Shown piece by piece: positions 34,046 to 40,763 of a stretch of DNA of 41,780 bases (its first letter is position 1; each line of letters starts with the position of its first letter). The DNA is from Candidatus Gastranaerophilales bacterium. GTDB lineage: Bacteria; Cyanobacteriota; Vampirovibrionia; Gastranaerophilales; Gastranaerophilaceae. Below the pieces are notes generated by a model. The model ran no database searches and was not told where the DNA came from. It saw only the letters and a program-made list of their open reading frames with translations. Where the stretch lies: the NCBI GenBank assembly GCA_944322625.1, contig CALUPN010000008.1, positions 1 to 41,780 on the forward strand, given 5' to 3'. The translations under genes were made by a program, and so were the position numbers.

Positions 34046-35251
34046 TTGTACGCATATCAACAACAGCCGAGAAAACCTGAGAGAAGATTACATGTCGTTC
34101 CCGACAGGAAACGGTCAATTGTTATAAATAAACCGGTTGTTAAAAAGAAAAAAAAGAATTTTTTAGTTGAATTTTTTAGAAAGATTGTTGTGTTTTCTTT
34201 TCTCGGGGCGTTTATTTATTATGTATTTCCCACGAGTTTTTCAAGGCTTATTGAAAACGTATTTTTCCCGCAGCCATTGCCGGCTAATGTAAAATCAATG
34301 CCTAATTTGCAAATAAAAAAAGATGAAATTATTAAAATGCAGAAGGCTGATTTATACTCAATTGCAAACCCGGTAACAAATTATTTAAACAATGATTTGT
34401 TCTTAAATCGTTTAATGTTAACCCCGACAATACAAAAAACCCACAGTGAAATTACAACAATGTATCAGACTTCGGAGATGACAGGTTTAAAGCAACAATT
34501 ACTGGCGCTTGCCGCACAATATCCGATGATTAAGCCGGCCGTTTATGTTTGGGAATATGAAAACGGAAAGTATGTTGATATTAATGCCGATAAAATGTAT
34601 TCTGCAGCAAGCATTATAAAGCTTCCGGTACTGGTAAGAATGTTCAAATCAATTGAAGCTAAGCAGATGACAATCTATGACGAGATGACATTAACCGATT
34701 ATTATAAATCATCAGGTTCAGGAAATCTGCAATATGCTCAAAGCGGAAGAAAGTATACGCTCGATCAGCTTGCAAAAACAATGATACAAGATTCGGACAA
34801 CACTTCCACTAACATGATTATGTCAAAATTAGGCGGCATGGACGATGTTAATATCGGCCTGAGAGACTGGGGAATTTCTGACACATACGTAAGAACCTGG
34901 CTTCCTGATTTAGCGGGAACCAATAAAACAACCGCTAAAGATATGGCAAAAATTCTCTATAACCTTGATAATCCCGGATTTTTGAACATAAATTCAAGAG
35001 AATATATTATAGATTACCTGAGCCACGTTAAAAATAACAGATTAATCGCAGCTGGACTGGGAGAAGGGGCAATGTTTGTTCACAAAACCGGTGACATTGG
35101 AACAATGCTCGGAGATGCCGGAATTGTTTATGCTCCGAACGGAAAGAAATACTTGGTGGTAATTCTTGCAAACCGCCCACACAATGCTCCGCAGGGAAAA
35201 GATTATATAGTAAAAGCTTCAAGCCTCATATATAAGGCAATCGTCGGTTAG
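34046..35251 (+). CDS. Membrane-anchored class A beta-lactamase-fold serine hydrolase
   Basis: This 401-residue protein starts at TTG, chosen because GGAGGG lies about 10 nt upstream and no in-frame ATG fits. A basic cytoplasmic N terminus and one membrane helix (about 46-62) anchor it with the enzyme domain outside. Catalytic motifs are S189-I-I-K192 (SxxK), S250-D-N252 and K347-T-G349. The omega-loop ExxLN (Glu166) is not found: the matching stretch reads RTWLPDLAG. Without Glu166 deacylation is expected to be poor, so a penicillin-interacting or peptidase role is as likely as resistance. Long N-terminal stalk (about 63-140). Confidence 0.8.
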   Translation: MYAYQQQPRKPERRLHVVPDRKRSIVINKPVVKKKKKNFLVEFFRKIVVFSFLGAFIYYVFPTSFSRLIENVFFPQPLPANVKSMPNLQIKKDEIIKMQKADLYSIANPVTNYLNNDLFLNRLMLTPTIQKTHSEITTMYQTSEMTGLKQQLLALAAQYPMIKPAVYVWEYENGKYVDINADKMYSAASIIKLPVLVRMFKSIEAKQMTIYDEMTLTDYYKSSGSGNLQYAQSGRKYTLDQLAKTMIQDSDNTSTNMIMSKLGGMDDVNIGLRDWGISDTYVRTWLPDLAGTNKTTAKDMAKILYNLDNPGFLNINSREYIIDYLSHVKNNRLIAAGLGEGAMFVHKTGDIGTMLGDAGIVYAPNGKKYLVVILANRPHNAPQGKDYIVKASSLIYKAIVG

Positions 35252-35258
35252 TAAATTA

Positions 35259-35289
35259 AACAGGTTTTAGATTTAAAACCTGTTTTTTT
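35259..35289 (+). terminator. Intrinsic terminator
   Basis: AACAGGTTTTA / TAAAACCTGTT with a 4-nt loop, followed by a T-run, closes the beta-lactamase-fold gene. Confidence 0.85.
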
Positions 35290-35320
35290 ATGTTATGCTG
35301 AAATAAGTTAGGAGAGTCGT

Positions 35321-36433
35321 ATGGAAAATAAAAATTTAGTTGTCGGAGCAGGATTTACCGGAGCGGTTATTGCAAGAAAAATTGCTGAAGAATTGGATGA
35401 AAAAGTTCTTTTGATTGATAGACGTAATTGTGCTGCAGGAAATTCTTACGACTACAAGGACAAAGAGACAGGGATTAGCGTACACAAATACGGCCCACAT
35501 ATTTTCCATACAAACAATAAAGAGGTTTGGGATTACTTATCAAGGTTTACAAAATGGCATTATTTTTTCTTAAAACCAAATGCCGTTATTGAGGGAGAAA
35601 AAGTTACACTGCCTTTTAATCTCACAACAATAAGAGAATTATTTTCTCCTAAAATGGCTGACAGGCTTGAAGAAAAACTTATCTCGAACTATGGTTACGG
35701 AATAAAAGTTCCGATTTTGAAGCTTAAGGAAAACGAAGATGAAGATTTGAAATTTCTCGCAGAATATATTTATGAAAATGTTTTCAAGAATTATACCACC
35801 AAACAATGGGGCTTAAAGCCGGAAGAAATTGACCCGACAGTTACCGCAAGAGTTCCGGTTTATATAAGCCACGATAACAGATACTTTCAGGACAAATATC
35901 AGGGAATTCCGCTAAATGGTTATACAAAACTTATTGAAAAAATGATTGACCATAAAAATATTGAGTTAAAACTCGGAGTTGATTACAAAGAACTCAAAGA
36001 AAAAGATTTTAAACGAATTTTTTATACAGGCGCTATTGATGAATTCTTTGATTACAAATACGGTGAGCTGCCGTATAGAAGTTTAAGGTTTGATGTCCGG
36101 ACTTTACATAAAGAATTCTATCAAAAAACAGTTGTAACAAATTATCCGAATAACTATGATTTTACAAGGATAACAGAACATAAATATTTCCTTGATGAAA
36201 AATCGGATAAGACAATAATTTCTGTTGAATATCCGGAGAAATTTGAATTAGGCAAAAATGAGAGGTATTATCCGATTTCTAATCCTGAAAATCAAGCTTT
36301 ATATGAAAAATATCAGAAAGAAGCGGAGAAATACCCAAATCTGCACTTCTGCGGCCGTTTGGGCGGATATAAATACTACAACATGGATTTGGCTGTCGAA
36401 AAAGCTTTAGAATTGTTCAAAAGCTTAAGCTAA
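35321..36433 (+). CDS. glf: UDP-galactopyranose mutase
   Basis: This 370-residue flavoenzyme interconverts UDP-galactopyranose and UDP-galactofuranose for surface glycans. The FAD-binding start LVVGAGFTGAVIARKIAEEL (about 5-24) is followed by NSYDYKDKETGISVHKYGPHIFHTNN, and near the end HFCGRLGGYKYYNMDLAVEKAL, all diagnostic. An AGGAG ribosome-binding site precedes the ATG. No other sugar or glycosyltransferase genes are adjacent; it sits before two surface exoprotein genes. Confidence 0.95.
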   Translation: MENKNLVVGAGFTGAVIARKIAEELDEKVLLIDRRNCAAGNSYDYKDKETGISVHKYGPHIFHTNNKEVWDYLSRFTKWHYFFLKPNAVIEGEKVTLPFNLTTIRELFSPKMADRLEEKLISNYGYGIKVPILKLKENEDEDLKFLAEYIYENVFKNYTTKQWGLKPEEIDPTVTARVPVYISHDNRYFQDKYQGIPLNGYTKLIEKMIDHKNIELKLGVDYKELKEKDFKRIFYTGAIDEFFDYKYGELPYRSLRFDVRTLHKEFYQKTVVTNYPNNYDFTRITEHKYFLDEKSDKTIISVEYPEKFELGKNERYYPISNPENQALYEKYQKEAEKYPNLHFCGRLGGYKYYNMDLAVEKALELFKSLS

Positions 36434-36549: not shown

Positions 36550-38565
36550 ATGAAAAATTTTAAGCGCAAATTATCAGCAGTTATTTTGTCAGCAATGTTA
36601 GTATCAACACAAGCTATGGCTATTGAATTCGATGGAGGACTTGATACTGGGCTTGGTAAAGAACACGGCGGCGCAGTAATTGATAAAATTACAGGTGGTT
36701 ATGTCGATTATAACAAAGGCAATAATTCCTTTGATTTAAACTTTAACGGCGATGCTCATGTTAATTGGGGAAATTTAAATATTGATAAAGGAGAATCTCT
36801 TAATTTTAATGCTGCTAACGGTGCTAACGGACTTACAATATTAAATACAGTAAATAGCGGAATGTCAACAATATATGGTCAGATAAATGCTAACCCGGGT
36901 ATTGCAAAATTAATTATTTCCAACCCGAACGGTGTTTTATTTGATGGAGCTCAGTTTACTACAGCTGGTGATGCGATGATTACTACTCAACCAATAACGG
37001 CAGAATTTATTAATGGTCAAATGCAGCTTGCAAATAATGTAAATTCTATACCTGTCGGAATGGTTCAAATAAAGGATTCTAATTTTAATGTCGGCGGTGA
37101 ATTCAATATTCTTGCTCCAGCTATAGATATTGCAAAAGGTTATATTCAAGCTAAAAACGGTATAAAATTAGTTACTGAAAACGGACAAGATTATCTTGCC
37201 GCCAATGCTGATAACGAAGATGCAATATATCCGGGAGTAAGGATGGAAGCAGTGAATATTGACGGTGATGTTTATATTCAAAACAAAGGCGGCAGCGTCA
37301 GAACATCAAATGGCGGAACGATTAACGGAAATGTAAATGTTACGTCAGATAATGGTTCGGTAGCATTCAACTATCGAAATAACGGTGAAAAACTTACTAT
37401 TAACGGGAATTTAAATTCTAATGCAAACGGACAAATGACTTTTGTAAGAAATGCTGATGTAAAAGGTAATCTTGCTCTTTCAAATAGCGGCGGGTTTGTT
37501 GATATAGGGGATGTTCATGTAACGGGTAATGCCGATTTAAAAACAACAGGAGTTGACGACATTACTGATAACAAGTTTAACCATTTTGTACACGTTATCG
37601 GCGAAACTCAAGTTGACGGGAATTTGAATGTAGATTCATCACAAAATATTCACATTGGCGGTTATGATTATGATGCGCAAAAACTCGCAGATGGTAAATT
37701 AACCGTAGGTGGTGATTTAACAGCACATGCTCATAACGGTCATGTTATGACAACAATTGATACAAGTGCAAACAAGATTTCTTTAAAATCTGATACACAT
37801 AATGTTTTAACAGATGGTAAAGCAACTTTGACAGCGAATCAGTATGACTTTTCTGCAAACGGTTATATCGGCGGTTTGCAAGCTACTGACGGTATGACCG
37901 TTGATCAAAAAGTTTTGACAATAATGGAAAAATATTATTTAATTCCTGAAACTGTTGGAACTCCTGCTTATATAAATATTGCAGGTGGTGAAGTTACCGG
38001 AATTAATACTCCGACCGGAGCTTCCGCTTATATAGCTTCAAACGGTAATATGACAGTAACCGGTGCAAATGCAGGCAATATTTATTTGACATCCTACGGC
38101 AAAGATATAAATATTACCGGAAACAATGTTCATGCTAACAATATTACAGTAGGCGGCGAAACTGACAAGTTAAAAGTTGATTATCCTTCAAGAGATTATA
38201 ACCTGACTTATACAAATATCAGAGACAATGCTCAGGTTAATATTAAAGGTAATGAAGAAATTACTTATAACTTGACGAATGGTGAAAACGGTTACAATAG
38301 AGGACAGCAAATAAAAGGTGAAAACACTTATCTTGTAGGGCCGGAAGGTCCGAATGAACCAGGCCCGGGACCAAATCCGGATCCTAATGAAAGTGCTAAA
38401 GTTTTGAGAAGCTATGAAAGACAGCCAAATGTAACTGCAGCACAGCCTTATACACCAATAGCTTATGCAGCTGACTTGGATGAAGATCAACAAAATGATA
38501 AAGGTATCAGAAAAAATGTTGATGGTTCAGTAACTGTTGTAAAAGCATTTCCTATGATTAATTAA
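36550..38565 (+). CDS. FHA/TPS-type filamentous exoprotein, paralogue 1
   Basis: This 671-residue protein has a signal peptide (MKNFKRKLSAVILSAMLVSTQAMA) and a filamentous-haemagglutinin N-terminal (TPS) domain with NPNGVLFDGAQFTTAGDAM, the NPNG motif read by TpsB transporters. The rest is a beta-helix-like repeat region rich in NG, GN and VDGN turns. The C terminus reads KVLRSYERQ, QPYTPIAYAADLD and RKNVDGSVTVV, also present in the next gene. Likely exported to the cell surface by two-partner secretion; no TpsB (FhaC-type) gene is in the window. Start at 36550 with GAGAAGG upstream. Confidence 0.85.
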   Translation: MKNFKRKLSAVILSAMLVSTQAMAIEFDGGLDTGLGKEHGGAVIDKITGGYVDYNKGNNSFDLNFNGDAHVNWGNLNIDKGESLNFNAANGANGLTILNTVNSGMSTIYGQINANPGIAKLIISNPNGVLFDGAQFTTAGDAMITTQPITAEFINGQMQLANNVNSIPVGMVQIKDSNFNVGGEFNILAPAIDIAKGYIQAKNGIKLVTENGQDYLAANADNEDAIYPGVRMEAVNIDGDVYIQNKGGSVRTSNGGTINGNVNVTSDNGSVAFNYRNNGEKLTINGNLNSNANGQMTFVRNADVKGNLALSNSGGFVDIGDVHVTGNADLKTTGVDDITDNKFNHFVHVIGETQVDGNLNVDSSQNIHIGGYDYDAQKLADGKLTVGGDLTAHAHNGHVMTTIDTSANKISLKSDTHNVLTDGKATLTANQYDFSANGYIGGLQATDGMTVDQKVLTIMEKYYLIPETVGTPAYINIAGGEVTGINTPTGASAYIASNGNMTVTGANAGNIYLTSYGKDINITGNNVHANNITVGGETDKLKVDYPSRDYNLTYTNIRDNAQVNIKGNEEITYNLTNGENGYNRGQQIKGENTYLVGPEGPNEPGPGPNPDPNESAKVLRSYERQPNVTAAQPYTPIAYAADLDEDQQNDKGIRKNVDGSVTVVKAFPMIN

Positions 38566-38574
38566 AATTTTATT

Positions 38575-38613
38575 AAACGGGCGGCGGTTTTAAAAAACCG
38601 CCGCCCGTTTTTT
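38575..38613 (+). terminator. Strong intrinsic terminator between the two FHA paralogues
   Basis: ACGGGCGGCGGTTTT / AAAACCGCCGCCCGT with flanking A and T runs shows the paralogues are separate transcripts. Confidence 0.9.
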
Positions 38614-38697
38614 GTTAACATACTGTAACAAAAAAGCAATTTTTTGAAATAAAAATACTTTTATATATTACGAGGATATAAAAACGAGGAGTAATAT

Positions 38698-40707
38698 ATG
38701 AAAAGTTTAAAGAAAAAGATTTCGGCTTTAGTTTTAACAACGGTATTTGCATCAATGCAATTATCTTACGCCGCATTAGCCCCCGGAGATACAGGTTTAG
38801 GCGCCGGACACGGCGGAGCAGTTATTACCGGAACTCAAGGCGGTTATGCAGGCATGACCGGTGCAGGAACCGGAAATGTAGATTTAAATTTCACAGGCGA
38901 CACACATGTTACCTGGGGCGAATTAAACGTAAACAGCGGTGAAAGCTTAAATTTTAATGCCATTAACGGCGCAAACGGACTTACCATTTTAAACACAGTA
39001 AACGGTAATATGTCTCATATTTATGGTCAAATCAATGCAAACAGCGGAATTGCAAAATTGATTATCTCAAACCCTAACGGAGTTTTATTTGACGGAGCAA
39101 AATTCACTACAGCCGGAGATGTAATGGTAACTACCCAGCCATACAATGCAACTTTTGTTGACGGGAAAATGGACATTACCAAAATCGGCAACACTCTTCC
39201 TGTCGGTGTAATAACTATCGAAGATTCAGATTTTTCAATAGGCGGTGAATTCAATGTTCTTGCTCCTTCAATTAATGTTGTCGGCGGTGAGATTGCAACA
39301 CAAAACGGAATGAAACTTGTTACTGAAAACGGGCAAGATTATATAGCAAACGGTTTTGAAGATGCCGTCAGAATGGAAGCTGTTAATATTGACGGCGATG
39401 TTTATATTGTTTCTAAAAAAGGTATGGTAAAAACAGTAGGCGGCGGTACTATTAACGGTAATTTAAATATTGATTCAGACGACAGTGTTTCTCTAAACTA
39501 TGTAGCAAACGGGAAAGCTCTTCACGTAAAAGGTGATGTTGATGTTAAAGGTAACGGAGTCTTAATGTATGCAAGAAATACCAAAGTTGACGGGAATTTA
39601 TCAATGGAAAACGGCGGCGGTTTCTTAGAAGTCGGTAATGTTCAGGTTGGCAAGGATTTGAACATAAAAACTGTTGCAAAGTCTGAAAATCCTGAAGGTT
39701 ACAAACACTTTGTCCACGTTGTCGGTGATAATACTGTAGGCGGCAACATGAATGTTGAGTCTGTAAATAATATTCACATTGGTAACTATAATATTGATGA
39801 AGGCAAGCTTCTCGACGGCAGCTTGAAAGTCGGTGGTGACTTGACGGCACACGCACAAGACGGTCATGTTATGGTTACGATTGATACTCAGGCAAATAAA
39901 ATTTCTCTTAAATCTGATAACTTGAATGTACTTACTGACGGCAAGGCAGTTCTTAGCGCAAATGAATATGAATTCGCATCAAACGGTTATCTCGGCGGTT
40001 TAAGCGGATATGGAGATTATACGGTAGATGATGTAATTATTGCAGTAATGGAAGGATATGTACCAATCCCAAATAACGCTCAAATTTCATCAAATATAAA
40101 TATCACAGGCGGTACAATCAGTAAGATTGAAACTCCTAATGGCGCAACTGCTAACATATCATCTTCCGGTGATGTAAAATTAACAGGTGCTAACGCCGGT
40201 ACAATTAATATTGAAGCTCCTGATAAGTATATTGAAATCACAGGTGACGTAAAAGCTAATACAATTAAAGTCGGTAATAAGACAGATAAGTTGAAAGTAG
40301 ATTATCCGTCAAGAGATTATGAATTAAAATACACAAATATTCGTGATGCTCAAGAAGTAACAATTAAGGGTGACGAAGAAATCACATACGAATTAACAAA
40401 CGGTGAAAACGGTTATAACGTAAACGAAAACAGAGCAGACGATACAACTTATCTTGTAGGTCCGGATAAAGAAGTTGAACCAACCCCGGAACCGGAACCG
40501 ACACCTGATCCTTCAATCGATCCCGAGGACAATGAAAACGTTAAGGTACTGAGAAGCTACGAAAGAATGGAAGATGTTAATAAAGCTCAACCATATACCC
40601 CGGTAGCATACGCAGCAGACCTTGATGATGATCTGGAAGATAACGGAGTCAGAAAAAATGTTGACGGTTCTGTAACAGTAGTAAAAACCTATGCGATGGG
40701 TAAATAG
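38698..40707 (+). CDS. FHA/TPS-type filamentous exoprotein, paralogue 2
   Basis: This 669-residue protein is a tandem paralogue of the preceding one. Shared features are the signal peptide, the LG-x-G/E-HGGAVI start, ESLNFN ... NGANGLTILNTVN, NPNGVLFDGAKFTTAGD, VRMEAVNIDGDVYI, the YPSRDY-KYTNIRD segment and the KVLRSYER ... NVDGSVTVVK tail. The middle differs more (about 440-470), as does the P/E/D-rich linker near 600-620. GAGGAG precedes the ATG. Expected to be a surface adhesin-like beta-helix. Confidence 0.85.
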   Translation: MKSLKKKISALVLTTVFASMQLSYAALAPGDTGLGAGHGGAVITGTQGGYAGMTGAGTGNVDLNFTGDTHVTWGELNVNSGESLNFNAINGANGLTILNTVNGNMSHIYGQINANSGIAKLIISNPNGVLFDGAKFTTAGDVMVTTQPYNATFVDGKMDITKIGNTLPVGVITIEDSDFSIGGEFNVLAPSINVVGGEIATQNGMKLVTENGQDYIANGFEDAVRMEAVNIDGDVYIVSKKGMVKTVGGGTINGNLNIDSDDSVSLNYVANGKALHVKGDVDVKGNGVLMYARNTKVDGNLSMENGGGFLEVGNVQVGKDLNIKTVAKSENPEGYKHFVHVVGDNTVGGNMNVESVNNIHIGNYNIDEGKLLDGSLKVGGDLTAHAQDGHVMVTIDTQANKISLKSDNLNVLTDGKAVLSANEYEFASNGYLGGLSGYGDYTVDDVIIAVMEGYVPIPNNAQISSNINITGGTISKIETPNGATANISSSGDVKLTGANAGTINIEAPDKYIEITGDVKANTIKVGNKTDKLKVDYPSRDYELKYTNIRDAQEVTIKGDEEITYELTNGENGYNVNENRADDTTYLVGPDKEVEPTPEPEPTPDPSIDPEDNENVKVLRSYERMEDVNKAQPYTPVAYAADLDDDLEDNGVRKNVDGSVTVVKTYAMGK

Positions 40708-40731: not shown

Positions 40732-40763
40732 ATAAACGGCGAACCTTTTGGTTCGCCGTTTAT
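40732..40763. terminator. Bidirectional intrinsic terminator
   Basis: ATAAACGGCGAACC / GGTTCGCCGTTTAT with a TTTT loop lies between the convergent FHA paralogue 2 and pilin-like genes. Confidence 0.85.

What the first reader, a model, noticed from the sequence alone, without database searches (positions are those of the whole stretch)
36550..40707. Tandem TPS exoproteins sharing a conserved C-terminal tail, no TpsB nearby
Both proteins keep the TPS domain and a matching C terminus (KVLRSYER, YTPxAYAADLD, RKNVDGSVTVVK). TpsA proteins usually lack a shared tail of this sort and usually neighbour their TpsB transporter. The tail could be an anchor or a recognition signal.
Basis: partly seen in the sequence, partly recalled or inferred. 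Interest (0 to 1): 0.5.

Follow-up and report, generated by a model that had tools for sequence, protein, structure and literature searches.

The report
Secreted-protein tail matched to its exporter
Two neighbouring surface-protein genes of an uncultured gut bacterium end in the same short tail; across the genus that tail has evolved in step with the single outer-membrane export pore rather than with the rest of its own protein, which suggests that the tail is a docking or holding signal for the pore.

Summary
Two tandem TPS exoproteins (671 and 669 aa) share the stated C-terminal motifs. The genome is a relative of Candidatus Gastranaerophilales. "No TpsB nearby" holds for the window only: the genome has one ShlB/FhaC-type TpsB on another contig. 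63 of 65 genus genomes have a strong TpsB match; in one, TpsB sits beside a tailed TpsA, as TpsB does in many sister-genus loci.
The tail is genus-wide (59 of 65 genomes), on TPS-type proteins wherever I extracted long frames. An 11-residue block is invariant in 58 of 58 aligned proteins. AlphaFold2 models a beta-helix, then a disordered linker and tail. No tail has the cysteine pair of HMW1/HxuA anchors; LapG is absent (0 of 20 genomes).
New result: the two copies of a genome have diverged in body (60% identity) but carry matching variable tail halves (79%; matched between-genome pairs about 34 points lower), mostly without matching synonymous sites. Between genomes the tail tracks TpsB (partial r 0.66), not its own body, BamA or a third gene. 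Best reading: a cysteine-free docking or retention motif read by the shared TpsB. That function is inferred, not shown. New variant of a known kind.

The parts
36550..38565 (+). TpsA copy 1 (671 aa): signal peptide (by eye), TPS domain, beta-helix, P/G/N/D-rich linker, conserved tail
   Evidence: PF05860 43.1 bits; TIGR01901 40.4 bits
36745..37458 (+). TPS secretion domain of copy 1
   Evidence: PF05860 match
38386..38562 (+). conserved C-terminal tail of copy 1
   Evidence: tail profile A1, E 7.0e-32
38452..38475 (+). tail box TPIAYAAD of copy 1
   Evidence: position; conserved box
38509..38541 (+). 11-residue block RKNVDGSVTVV of copy 1
   Evidence: homologous block invariant in 58 of 58 proteins
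38575..38610 (+). terminator-like hairpin after copy 1 (16 pairs, 10 G-C, then T run)
38698..40707 (+). TpsA copy 2 (669 aa), same architecture
   Evidence: PF05860 49.0 bits; AlphaFold2 model
38896..39558 (+). TPS secretion domain of copy 2
   Evidence: PF05860 match
40468..40530 (+). low-complexity Pro/Glu/Asp linker of copy 2 (residues 591-611)
   Evidence: sequence; pLDDT below 50 for residues 591-669
40531..40704 (+). conserved C-terminal tail of copy 2
   Evidence: tail profile A1, E 1.2e-33
40597..40620 (+). tail box TPVAYAAD of copy 2
   Evidence: position
40651..40683 (+). 11-residue block RKNVDGSVTVV of copy 2 (residues 652-662)
   Evidence: invariant in 58 of 58
40732..40763 (+). 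terminator-like hairpin after copy 2 (14 pairs, 7 G-C)

Best explanation
The two genes encode type Vb (two-partner) exoproteins: Sec-exported, with an N-terminal TPS domain and a beta-helical passenger, carried across the outer membrane by the genome's single unlinked TpsB (domains shown by profiles and model; transport inferred). Each ends in a flexible low-complexity linker and a disordered but strongly conserved linear motif. Inferred mechanism: after the helix has been threaded out, the tail stays in or reaches the periplasmic mouth of TpsB and binds it (most likely its POTRA region), so that the exoprotein is docked or held at the cell surface, the job that the disulfide-looped C terminus does in HMW1/HxuA but here without cysteines. 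Because both copies use one TpsB, both tails must fit it, so the variable half of the tail evolves with TpsB and with the other copy, not with its own body. Shown: architecture, tail conservation, tail-specific homogeneity within genomes, tail-TpsB covariation. Inferred: physical binding, periplasmic location, retention.
For: TPS domain in both. One TpsB with POTRA_2, POTRA and ShlB domains in the genome. TpsB beside a tailed TpsA in G044. Tail in 59 of 65 genus genomes; of 84 long tail-bearing proteins extracted, 83 carry NPNG or NPDG in the first 300 aa. The 11-residue block is invariant in 58 of 58 although residues 591-669 have pLDDT below 50, the pattern of a linear motif under selection. 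In 32 genomes with two extracted copies, bodies are 60% identical and the variable tail half 79%; this exceeds between-genome pairs of equal body divergence by 0.34 on average and in 30 of 32. In a sliding control the excess peaks at residues 611-632 (0.33) against body windows (starts 27-560) of mean 0.002, sd 0.071, maximum 0.117. Synonymous identity in the tail is raised in only 7 of 32 pairs (one-sided Fisher p < 0.05, uncorrected). Among 26 genomes (1300 pairs) tail identity correlates with TpsB identity r 0.91; the partial correlation is 0.66 with body, BamA and a third protein held fixed (ranks 0.51), against 0.03 for body, -0.10 for BamA and 0.12 for the third protein; 500 genome-label permutations reached at most 0.24. 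The same partial for 59 body windows is at most 0.24, and 0.04 for the TPS domain.
Against: No binding, localisation or retention was tested. All correlations are from pairwise identities, which are not independent, and TpsB may simply be the best clock of the species tree; by ranks the third protein keeps a partial of 0.30, and among close genomes only (BamA identity above 0.85, 620 pairs, run while one third-protein row was faulty) the TpsB partial falls to 0.31. Gene conversion probably contributed in some genomes (7 of 32). The tail of a paralogue is strictly closer than that of the nearest-body homologue in another genome in only 35 of 64 comparisons. The window's own pair has less alike tails (0.68) than its near relatives' orthologues do (0.91 and 1.00). 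The anchor features known elsewhere (Cys pair, LapG) are absent. Two genomes of 90% completeness or more lack the tail yet keep TpsB (G016, G025).
Confidence: 0.45

Rival explanations
1. The tail binds some other partner that each species has one of (a periplasmic or surface receptor, a protease, a peptidoglycan or lipid-linked factor) and follows that partner; the link with TpsB reflects shared ancestry.
For: Tail matching between the two copies of a genome needs only some shared partner. In several sister genera a TPR protein lies beside TpsA (by eye; two Pfam-checked). Rank partial with the third protein is 0.30.
Against: Partial correlation with TpsB stays at 0.66 after BamA and a third protein are held fixed. 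No obvious partner gene is next to the window's TpsA genes: upstream UDP-galactopyranose mutase, downstream a prepilin-like gene.
Confidence: 0.25
2. Recurrent gene conversion at the conserved 3' end homogenises the tails of the two copies without any functional match to a partner.
For: Synonymous identity in the tail is raised in 7 of 32 genomes and a little overall (496 of 864 against 2376 of 4685 in the body). The invariant block offers DNA homology at the 3' end.
Against: In 25 of 32 genomes synonymous identity in the tail is not significantly raised, including pairs with 84-90% identical tail residues and 37-47% identical synonymous sites (G002, G018, G035, G043, G053). Pairs that I did not class as tandem match about as well as the 12 tandem ones (0.78 against 0.81). 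Conversion does not explain why the tail tracks TpsB.
Confidence: 0.15
3. The tail is a processing site: AYA/AFA followed by A-[DE] looks like a small-x-Ala cleavage site, and cleavage would release the exoprotein, as LapG does for CdrA.
For: TP[VI]A[YF]AA[DE] is conserved from this genus to genus g50, and the second tail type, in nine sister genera, has an invariant Ala-Ala in the 16 rows aligned.
Against: LapG family PF06035 has no match in 20 of 20 genus genomes searched, with a positive control in Caulobacter. The most conserved block is downstream of the would-be site and would be discarded. Profile comparison does not show the two tail types to be homologous (probability 0.2 on hhalign's scale of 100).
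Confidence: 0.12
4. The C terminus is a CDI-type toxin or another effector domain.
For: TPS exoproteins can carry C-terminal toxin domains (PMC5472700 passages).
Against: The tail is only about 60 residues, conserved rather than polymorphic, modelled as disordered. The 132-base gap after copy 1 has no room for a gene of 60 aa, and copy 2 is followed by a prepilin-like gene on the other strand.
Confidence: 0.02

Closest known systems
HMW1/HMW2 and HxuA of Haemophilus influenzae (anchored TpsA)
   Same: TPS domain and beta-helix; a C-terminal stretch after the helix that a review says remains periplasmic and is locked in the TpsB pore (PMC5422565, passage). Foldseek best hit of the model is the HMW1 secretion domain 2odl (E 6.7e-06), with HxuA 4rm6 at 1.1e-04; TM-scores by query are only 0.20 and 0.29.
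   Different: The known anchor is a disulfide-closed loop; 0 of 84 tails here have two or more Cys in the last 63 residues. No glycosyltransferase or TonB-dependent receptor gene lies next to the window's copies. TpsB is not in the same operon.
FhaB/FhaC of Bordetella (retained C-terminal prodomain)
   Same: A non-secreted C-terminal portion after the beta-helix controls release (PMC5422565 passage). The layout helix, proline-rich stretch, conserved end recalls the FhaB prodomain (its proline-rich region and extreme C terminus are from recall; my search for that wording gave listings only).
   Different: FhaB is ~370 kDa (abstract seen) with a large prodomain (recalled). The tail here is about 60 residues; no profile link was tested.
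CdrA/CdrB of Pseudomonas aeruginosa
   Same: TpsA with a periplasmic C-terminal tail that decides surface retention (PMC5422565 passage).
   Different: LapG, the protease that cuts that tail, has no match in 20 of 20 genus genomes.
Neisseria meningitidis TPS: up to five tpsA and two tpsB
   Same: One TpsB of broad specificity; substrate specificity set by POTRA domains (PMC5472700 passage).
   Different: There the recognised part is the N-terminal TPS domain; here the TPS domain shows no covariation with TpsB (partial 0.04) while the tail does (0.67).

Membership tests
Two-partner secretion TpsA (type Vb) | TPS secretion domain near the N terminus | tested here: met
   PF05860 43.1 and 49.0 bits, cut-off 33.5; TIGR01901 40.4 and 46.3 bits, cut-off 29.1
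Two-partner secretion TpsA (type Vb) | Sec signal peptide | tested here: inconclusive
   n, h and AMA/SYA regions read by eye; no predictor was run
Two-partner secretion TpsA (type Vb) | Beta-helix passenger | tested here: met
   AlphaFold2 model of copy 2, mean pLDDT 78.5, strands to residue 587; Foldseek hits to HMW1, EtpA, HxuA. Handedness was not measured
Two-partner secretion TpsA (type Vb) | A TpsB (POTRA plus ShlB barrel) in the genome | tested here: met
   G000:C9, ShlB 98.6 bits, POTRA_2 60.5 bits, POTRA 49.4 bits
Two-partner secretion TpsA (type Vb) | TpsA gene next to its TpsB (usual rather than defining) | tested here: not met
   Different contigs in this genome; met in G044 and in many sister-genus loci. 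The review says other arrangements occur
HMW1/HxuA-type disulfide-anchored TpsA | Cysteine pair in the C-terminal anchor | tested here: not met
   0 of 84 tails have two or more Cys in the last 63 residues; 13 of 84 have one
HMW1/HxuA-type disulfide-anchored TpsA | C terminus stays in the periplasm | not testable with these tools
   needs protein localisation
CdrA/LapG-regulated TpsA | LapG protease (PF06035) in the genome | tested here: not met
   0 of 20 genus genomes, control positive in Caulobacter
CDI exoproteins (CdiA) | Polymorphic C-terminal toxin and adjacent immunity gene | tested here: not met
   Tail conserved across the genus; no room for a gene in the 132-base gap and a prepilin-like gene after copy 2

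The most novel reading that the evidence does not exclude
TpsA proteins of this lineage carry a second, C-terminal TpsB-recognition module: a disordered linear motif that, rather than the canonical TPS domain, has co-evolved with the species' TpsB, so that one orphan transporter keeps two diverging adhesin-like proteins on the surface. The strongest covarying TpsB windows lie at the start of its first POTRA (residues 86-140 from the MKK start; partial 0.47 at best, next region 0.29, run with one faulty third-protein row). This would be a cysteine-free, evolvable anchor code for type Vb secretion.
Probability: 0.33. Interest if true: 0.7.

Novelty: new variant of a known kind. Interest (0 to 1): 0.5.

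Why it matters
Two-partner secretion is understood from N-terminal TPS domain recognition; how and whether the C terminus is held back is known for a few proteobacterial proteins with disulfide loops or proteolysis. Here a genus of uncultured gut Gastranaerophilales keeps a cysteine-poor C-terminal motif whose variable half follows the transporter, not the passenger. That makes a direct, testable pair (tail and TpsB) and a hold on how one orphan TpsB handles two exoproteins. I found no paper linking Gastranaerophilales or Melainabacteria with this system: searches 'Gastranaerophilales' + 'two-partner secretion' (1 paper, a review of gut microbiota and resistance by its abstract), 'Gastranaerophilales' + 'adhesin' (7 papers, judged from the listing) and 'Melainabacteria' + 'hemagglutinin' (0 papers), all in open-licence PMC text only.

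Tried and rejected
Missing transporter: rejected, TpsB found. LapG-type release: rejected for this genus. Hydrophobic C-terminal sorting signals of the PEP-CTERM or sortase sort: rejected by reading, the tail has no long hydrophobic stretch (signal types recalled). One tail ancestral to the whole family: a second tail type (A2: 38 of 191 family genomes, 9 genera, on long frames apart from short ones in G174 and G290; the rows that I extracted are TPS proteins, the others were not checked one by one) resembles this one in an Ala-Ala-acidic box, but hhalign gave no support (probability 0.2), so I do not claim homology; only genus g50 shares the tail by profile (6 genomes, E 2e-7 to 0.003). A known family for the tail: no Pfam or NCBIfam model over its cut-off covers it. 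Acidic tail against the basic TpsB C-terminal extension: speculation, no test. Pearson correlation for the third protein was first spoiled by one contig-edge fragment (G010) and was redone without it. Rows dropped: of 30 genomes searched for controls, G011 and G020 lacked a usable BamA row, G043 and G010 a full third-protein row, leaving 26. The set of 84 proteins was chosen by RKN.DGS near the end, so '84 of 84' for the block is partly by construction; the 58-protein figure was chosen by NPNG/SPNG and length, though its loci came from matches to copy 2 or to the tail. Tail types were defined by me after seeing the sequences.
Full report
WHAT IS THERE. The window is contig C8 of a 2.1 Mb, 156-contig genome. 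Of 13 named loci with relatives of copy 2, 12 are from metagenome-assembled genomes titled Candidatus Gastranaerophilales bacterium and one from an uncultured bacterium. Two tandem genes, 36550-38565 and 38698-40707, encode proteins of 671 and 669 aa with TPS domains over the Pfam cut-off. Each gene is followed by its own terminator-like hairpin (38575-38610 and 40732-40763; 6 such sites found in the scanned region, 3.5 expected), so they look like separate transcription units. They are the only PF05860 matches in the genome at E <= 0.001.

TRANSPORTER. PF03865 finds one true TpsB in this genome (G000:C9; ShlB 98.6 bits with POTRA_2 and POTRA); the other weak hit is a BamA-type Omp85 protein. 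In the genus, 65 of 65 genomes have a match at E <= 0.001 (some of these weak, of BamA type) and 63 of 65 have one at E <= 1e-9, counted from the best_E column. In the 20 TpsB neighbourhoods listed no TPS gene was flagged. In G044, the only genome where searches place both on one contig, TpsB lies 385 bases from a tailed TpsA, tail to tail. In sister genera TpsB is often next to TpsA: Pfam-checked in g46, g35 (divergent) and g58 (same strand), and judged by length and sequence ends in many other loci. It was not seen in every fetched locus (for example those of g34, f7 and the tail-bearing g50 proteins, whose flanks were short). So the pair has most likely been separated in this genus.

TAIL DISTRIBUTION. 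A tail profile (A1, 13 rows) matches 59 of 65 genus genomes, 40 of 42 of those at least 90% complete and at most 5% contaminated. Of the six without a match four are drafts under 90% complete; G016 and G025 are 97% and 95% complete. A family-wide draw of 288 genomes gives the tail outside the genus only in g50 (6 genomes), over the first part of the profile; two of those frames, of 1596 and 2771 aa, are PF05860 matches. Aligned, the two genera share TP[VI]A[YF]AA[DE] and a later basic-DG-beta pattern (7 and 5 rows). Nine other genera carry a different tail (A2; 38 of 191 genomes, one match each except G290 with two), which I could not show to be homologous; several genera show neither tail.

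CONSERVATION AND STRUCTURE. In 58 full-length proteins RKNVDGSVTVV (copy 2 residues 652-662) is invariant; no other run exceeds 4, and 5000 shuffles never exceeded 6. AlphaFold2 (13 sequences; mean pLDDT 78.5) gives a beta-helix to about residue 587 and pLDDT below 50 for 591-669. Solved relatives by fold are HMW1, EtpA and HxuA. A linker of 9 to 76 residues, 76% P/D/E/G/N on average, precedes the tail (71 of 84 proteins measured). Conserved and disordered points to a motif that folds on a partner.

TAILS MATCH WITHIN A GENOME. Of 84 tail-bearing proteins from 52 genomes, 32 genomes gave two copies, 32 pairs in all. Pair bodies average 60% identity, the 22 residues before TPVAYAAD 79%. Between-genome pairs of equal body identity average 0.34 less; the within pair is higher in 30 of 32. 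A sliding window confines the effect to the tail: excess 0.33 at 611-632, body windows mean 0.002, sd 0.071, maximum 0.117; it begins to rise in the linker (0.12 at 576-597). On the body tree (quick method) the two copies of several genomes fall in different clades yet carry the same tail type (for example G020, G022, G046, G103); types agree in 31 of 32 pairs, shuffled mean 9.8, maximum 20. Counter-result: the paralogue's tail is strictly closer than that of the nearest-body homologue elsewhere in 35 of 64 cases only, and the window's own pair is not among the matched extremes (0.68).

NOT MAINLY CONVERSION. At fourfold-type sites identity within pairs is 496 of 864 in the tail and 2376 of 4685 in the body; between random genomes it is 4283 of 8350 in the tail. 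Seven of 32 genomes show raised tail values (one-sided Fisher p < 0.05, uncorrected), so conversion probably happens, but pairs such as G018 and G035 have 90% identical tail residues with 11 of 30 and 12 of 29 identical synonymous sites. Pairs not classed as tandem match about as well as tandem ones (0.78, n 20; 0.81, n 12).

THE TAIL FOLLOWS TpsB. Among 26 genomes, 1300 between-genome pairs, tail identity correlates with body 0.61, TpsB 0.91, BamA 0.83 and a third protein (beta-lactamase-like, window 34046-35251) 0.74. Partials: body 0.03, TpsB 0.66, BamA -0.10, third 0.12; by ranks 0.06, 0.51, 0.00, 0.30. Permuting genome labels of TpsB 500 times reached 0.24 at most. As a control, 59 body windows have partials of at most 0.24, and the TPS domain 0.04. 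Earlier versions with fewer controls gave 0.73 and 0.56; among close genomes only, the partial was 0.31. The best TpsB windows are residues 86-140, the start of POTRA 1 by the Pfam span.

READING. The simplest account is that TpsB reads the tail, and that the tail docks or holds the exoprotein. A review states that the C termini of HMW1 and HxuA are anchors expected to stay in the periplasm, with a disulfide-made loop that locks them in the TpsB pore, and that CdrA has a periplasmic tail cut by LapG (PMC5422565, passages). Here both devices fail: no tail has two cysteines (0 of 84) and LapG is absent (0 of 20). Hence a new variant of a known kind, works-like rather than member-of. Binding, location and retention are inferred.

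Noticed in passing
L138:3679-7938 and L139:2202-5735 (genus g34, genomes G152 and G302): Long TPS-like proteins (PF05860 below its cut-off) with an N-terminal signal-like stretch end in a C-terminal PilZ domain (37.1 and 31.1 bits). A c-di-GMP-binding type of domain on a seemingly exported beta-helix protein is odd and worth its own look.
   Followed up: partly
L126:1383-5574 (G044:C17): The only genus genome seen with TpsB next to a tailed TpsA, convergent with a 385-base gap; perhaps the ancestral linkage or a re-joining.
   Followed up: partly
L154:3568-5865, L153:1-1569 (G056, G005): A second TpsB class (frames of about 520-800 aa) in part of the genus, beside a large ORF starting MAKN; in G056 the transporter is Pfam-checked and the large ORF has no Pfam match.
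   Followed up: partly
G021, G042, G055, G043 and others: A second BamA-like Omp85 protein, 49-59% identical to the window genome's BamA, in 14 of the 30 genomes searched at E <= 1e-100.
   Followed up: no
L157:5611-7371, L168:7634-9778 and loci of g47, g51, g54: A TPR-repeat protein directly beside TpsA in several sister genera (two Pfam-checked, the rest by eye); a candidate third partner.
   Followed up: partly
window 34046-36433: The beta-lactamase-like gene lies within about 300 bases upstream of a TpsA copy in several genus genomes (for example G002, G026, G050, G053); in the window a UDP-galactopyranose mutase gene lies between them.
   Followed up: partly
contig ends such as G012:C62, G012:C81, G029:C12, G029:C148, G057:C27: In a few genomes tail-coding DNA sits at the very end of contigs, as if repeated tails break assemblies.
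   Followed up: no
C termini of TpsB in the genus (51 proteins): 51 of 51 have a DLDR or DFDR extension past the last barrel strand, mostly RLIPLRNP[EQ]K[LI] (DLDR was one of the selection patterns); most adjacent TpsBs of sister genera stop at the barrel, but those of g58 and g63 have a similar extension.
   Followed up: partly
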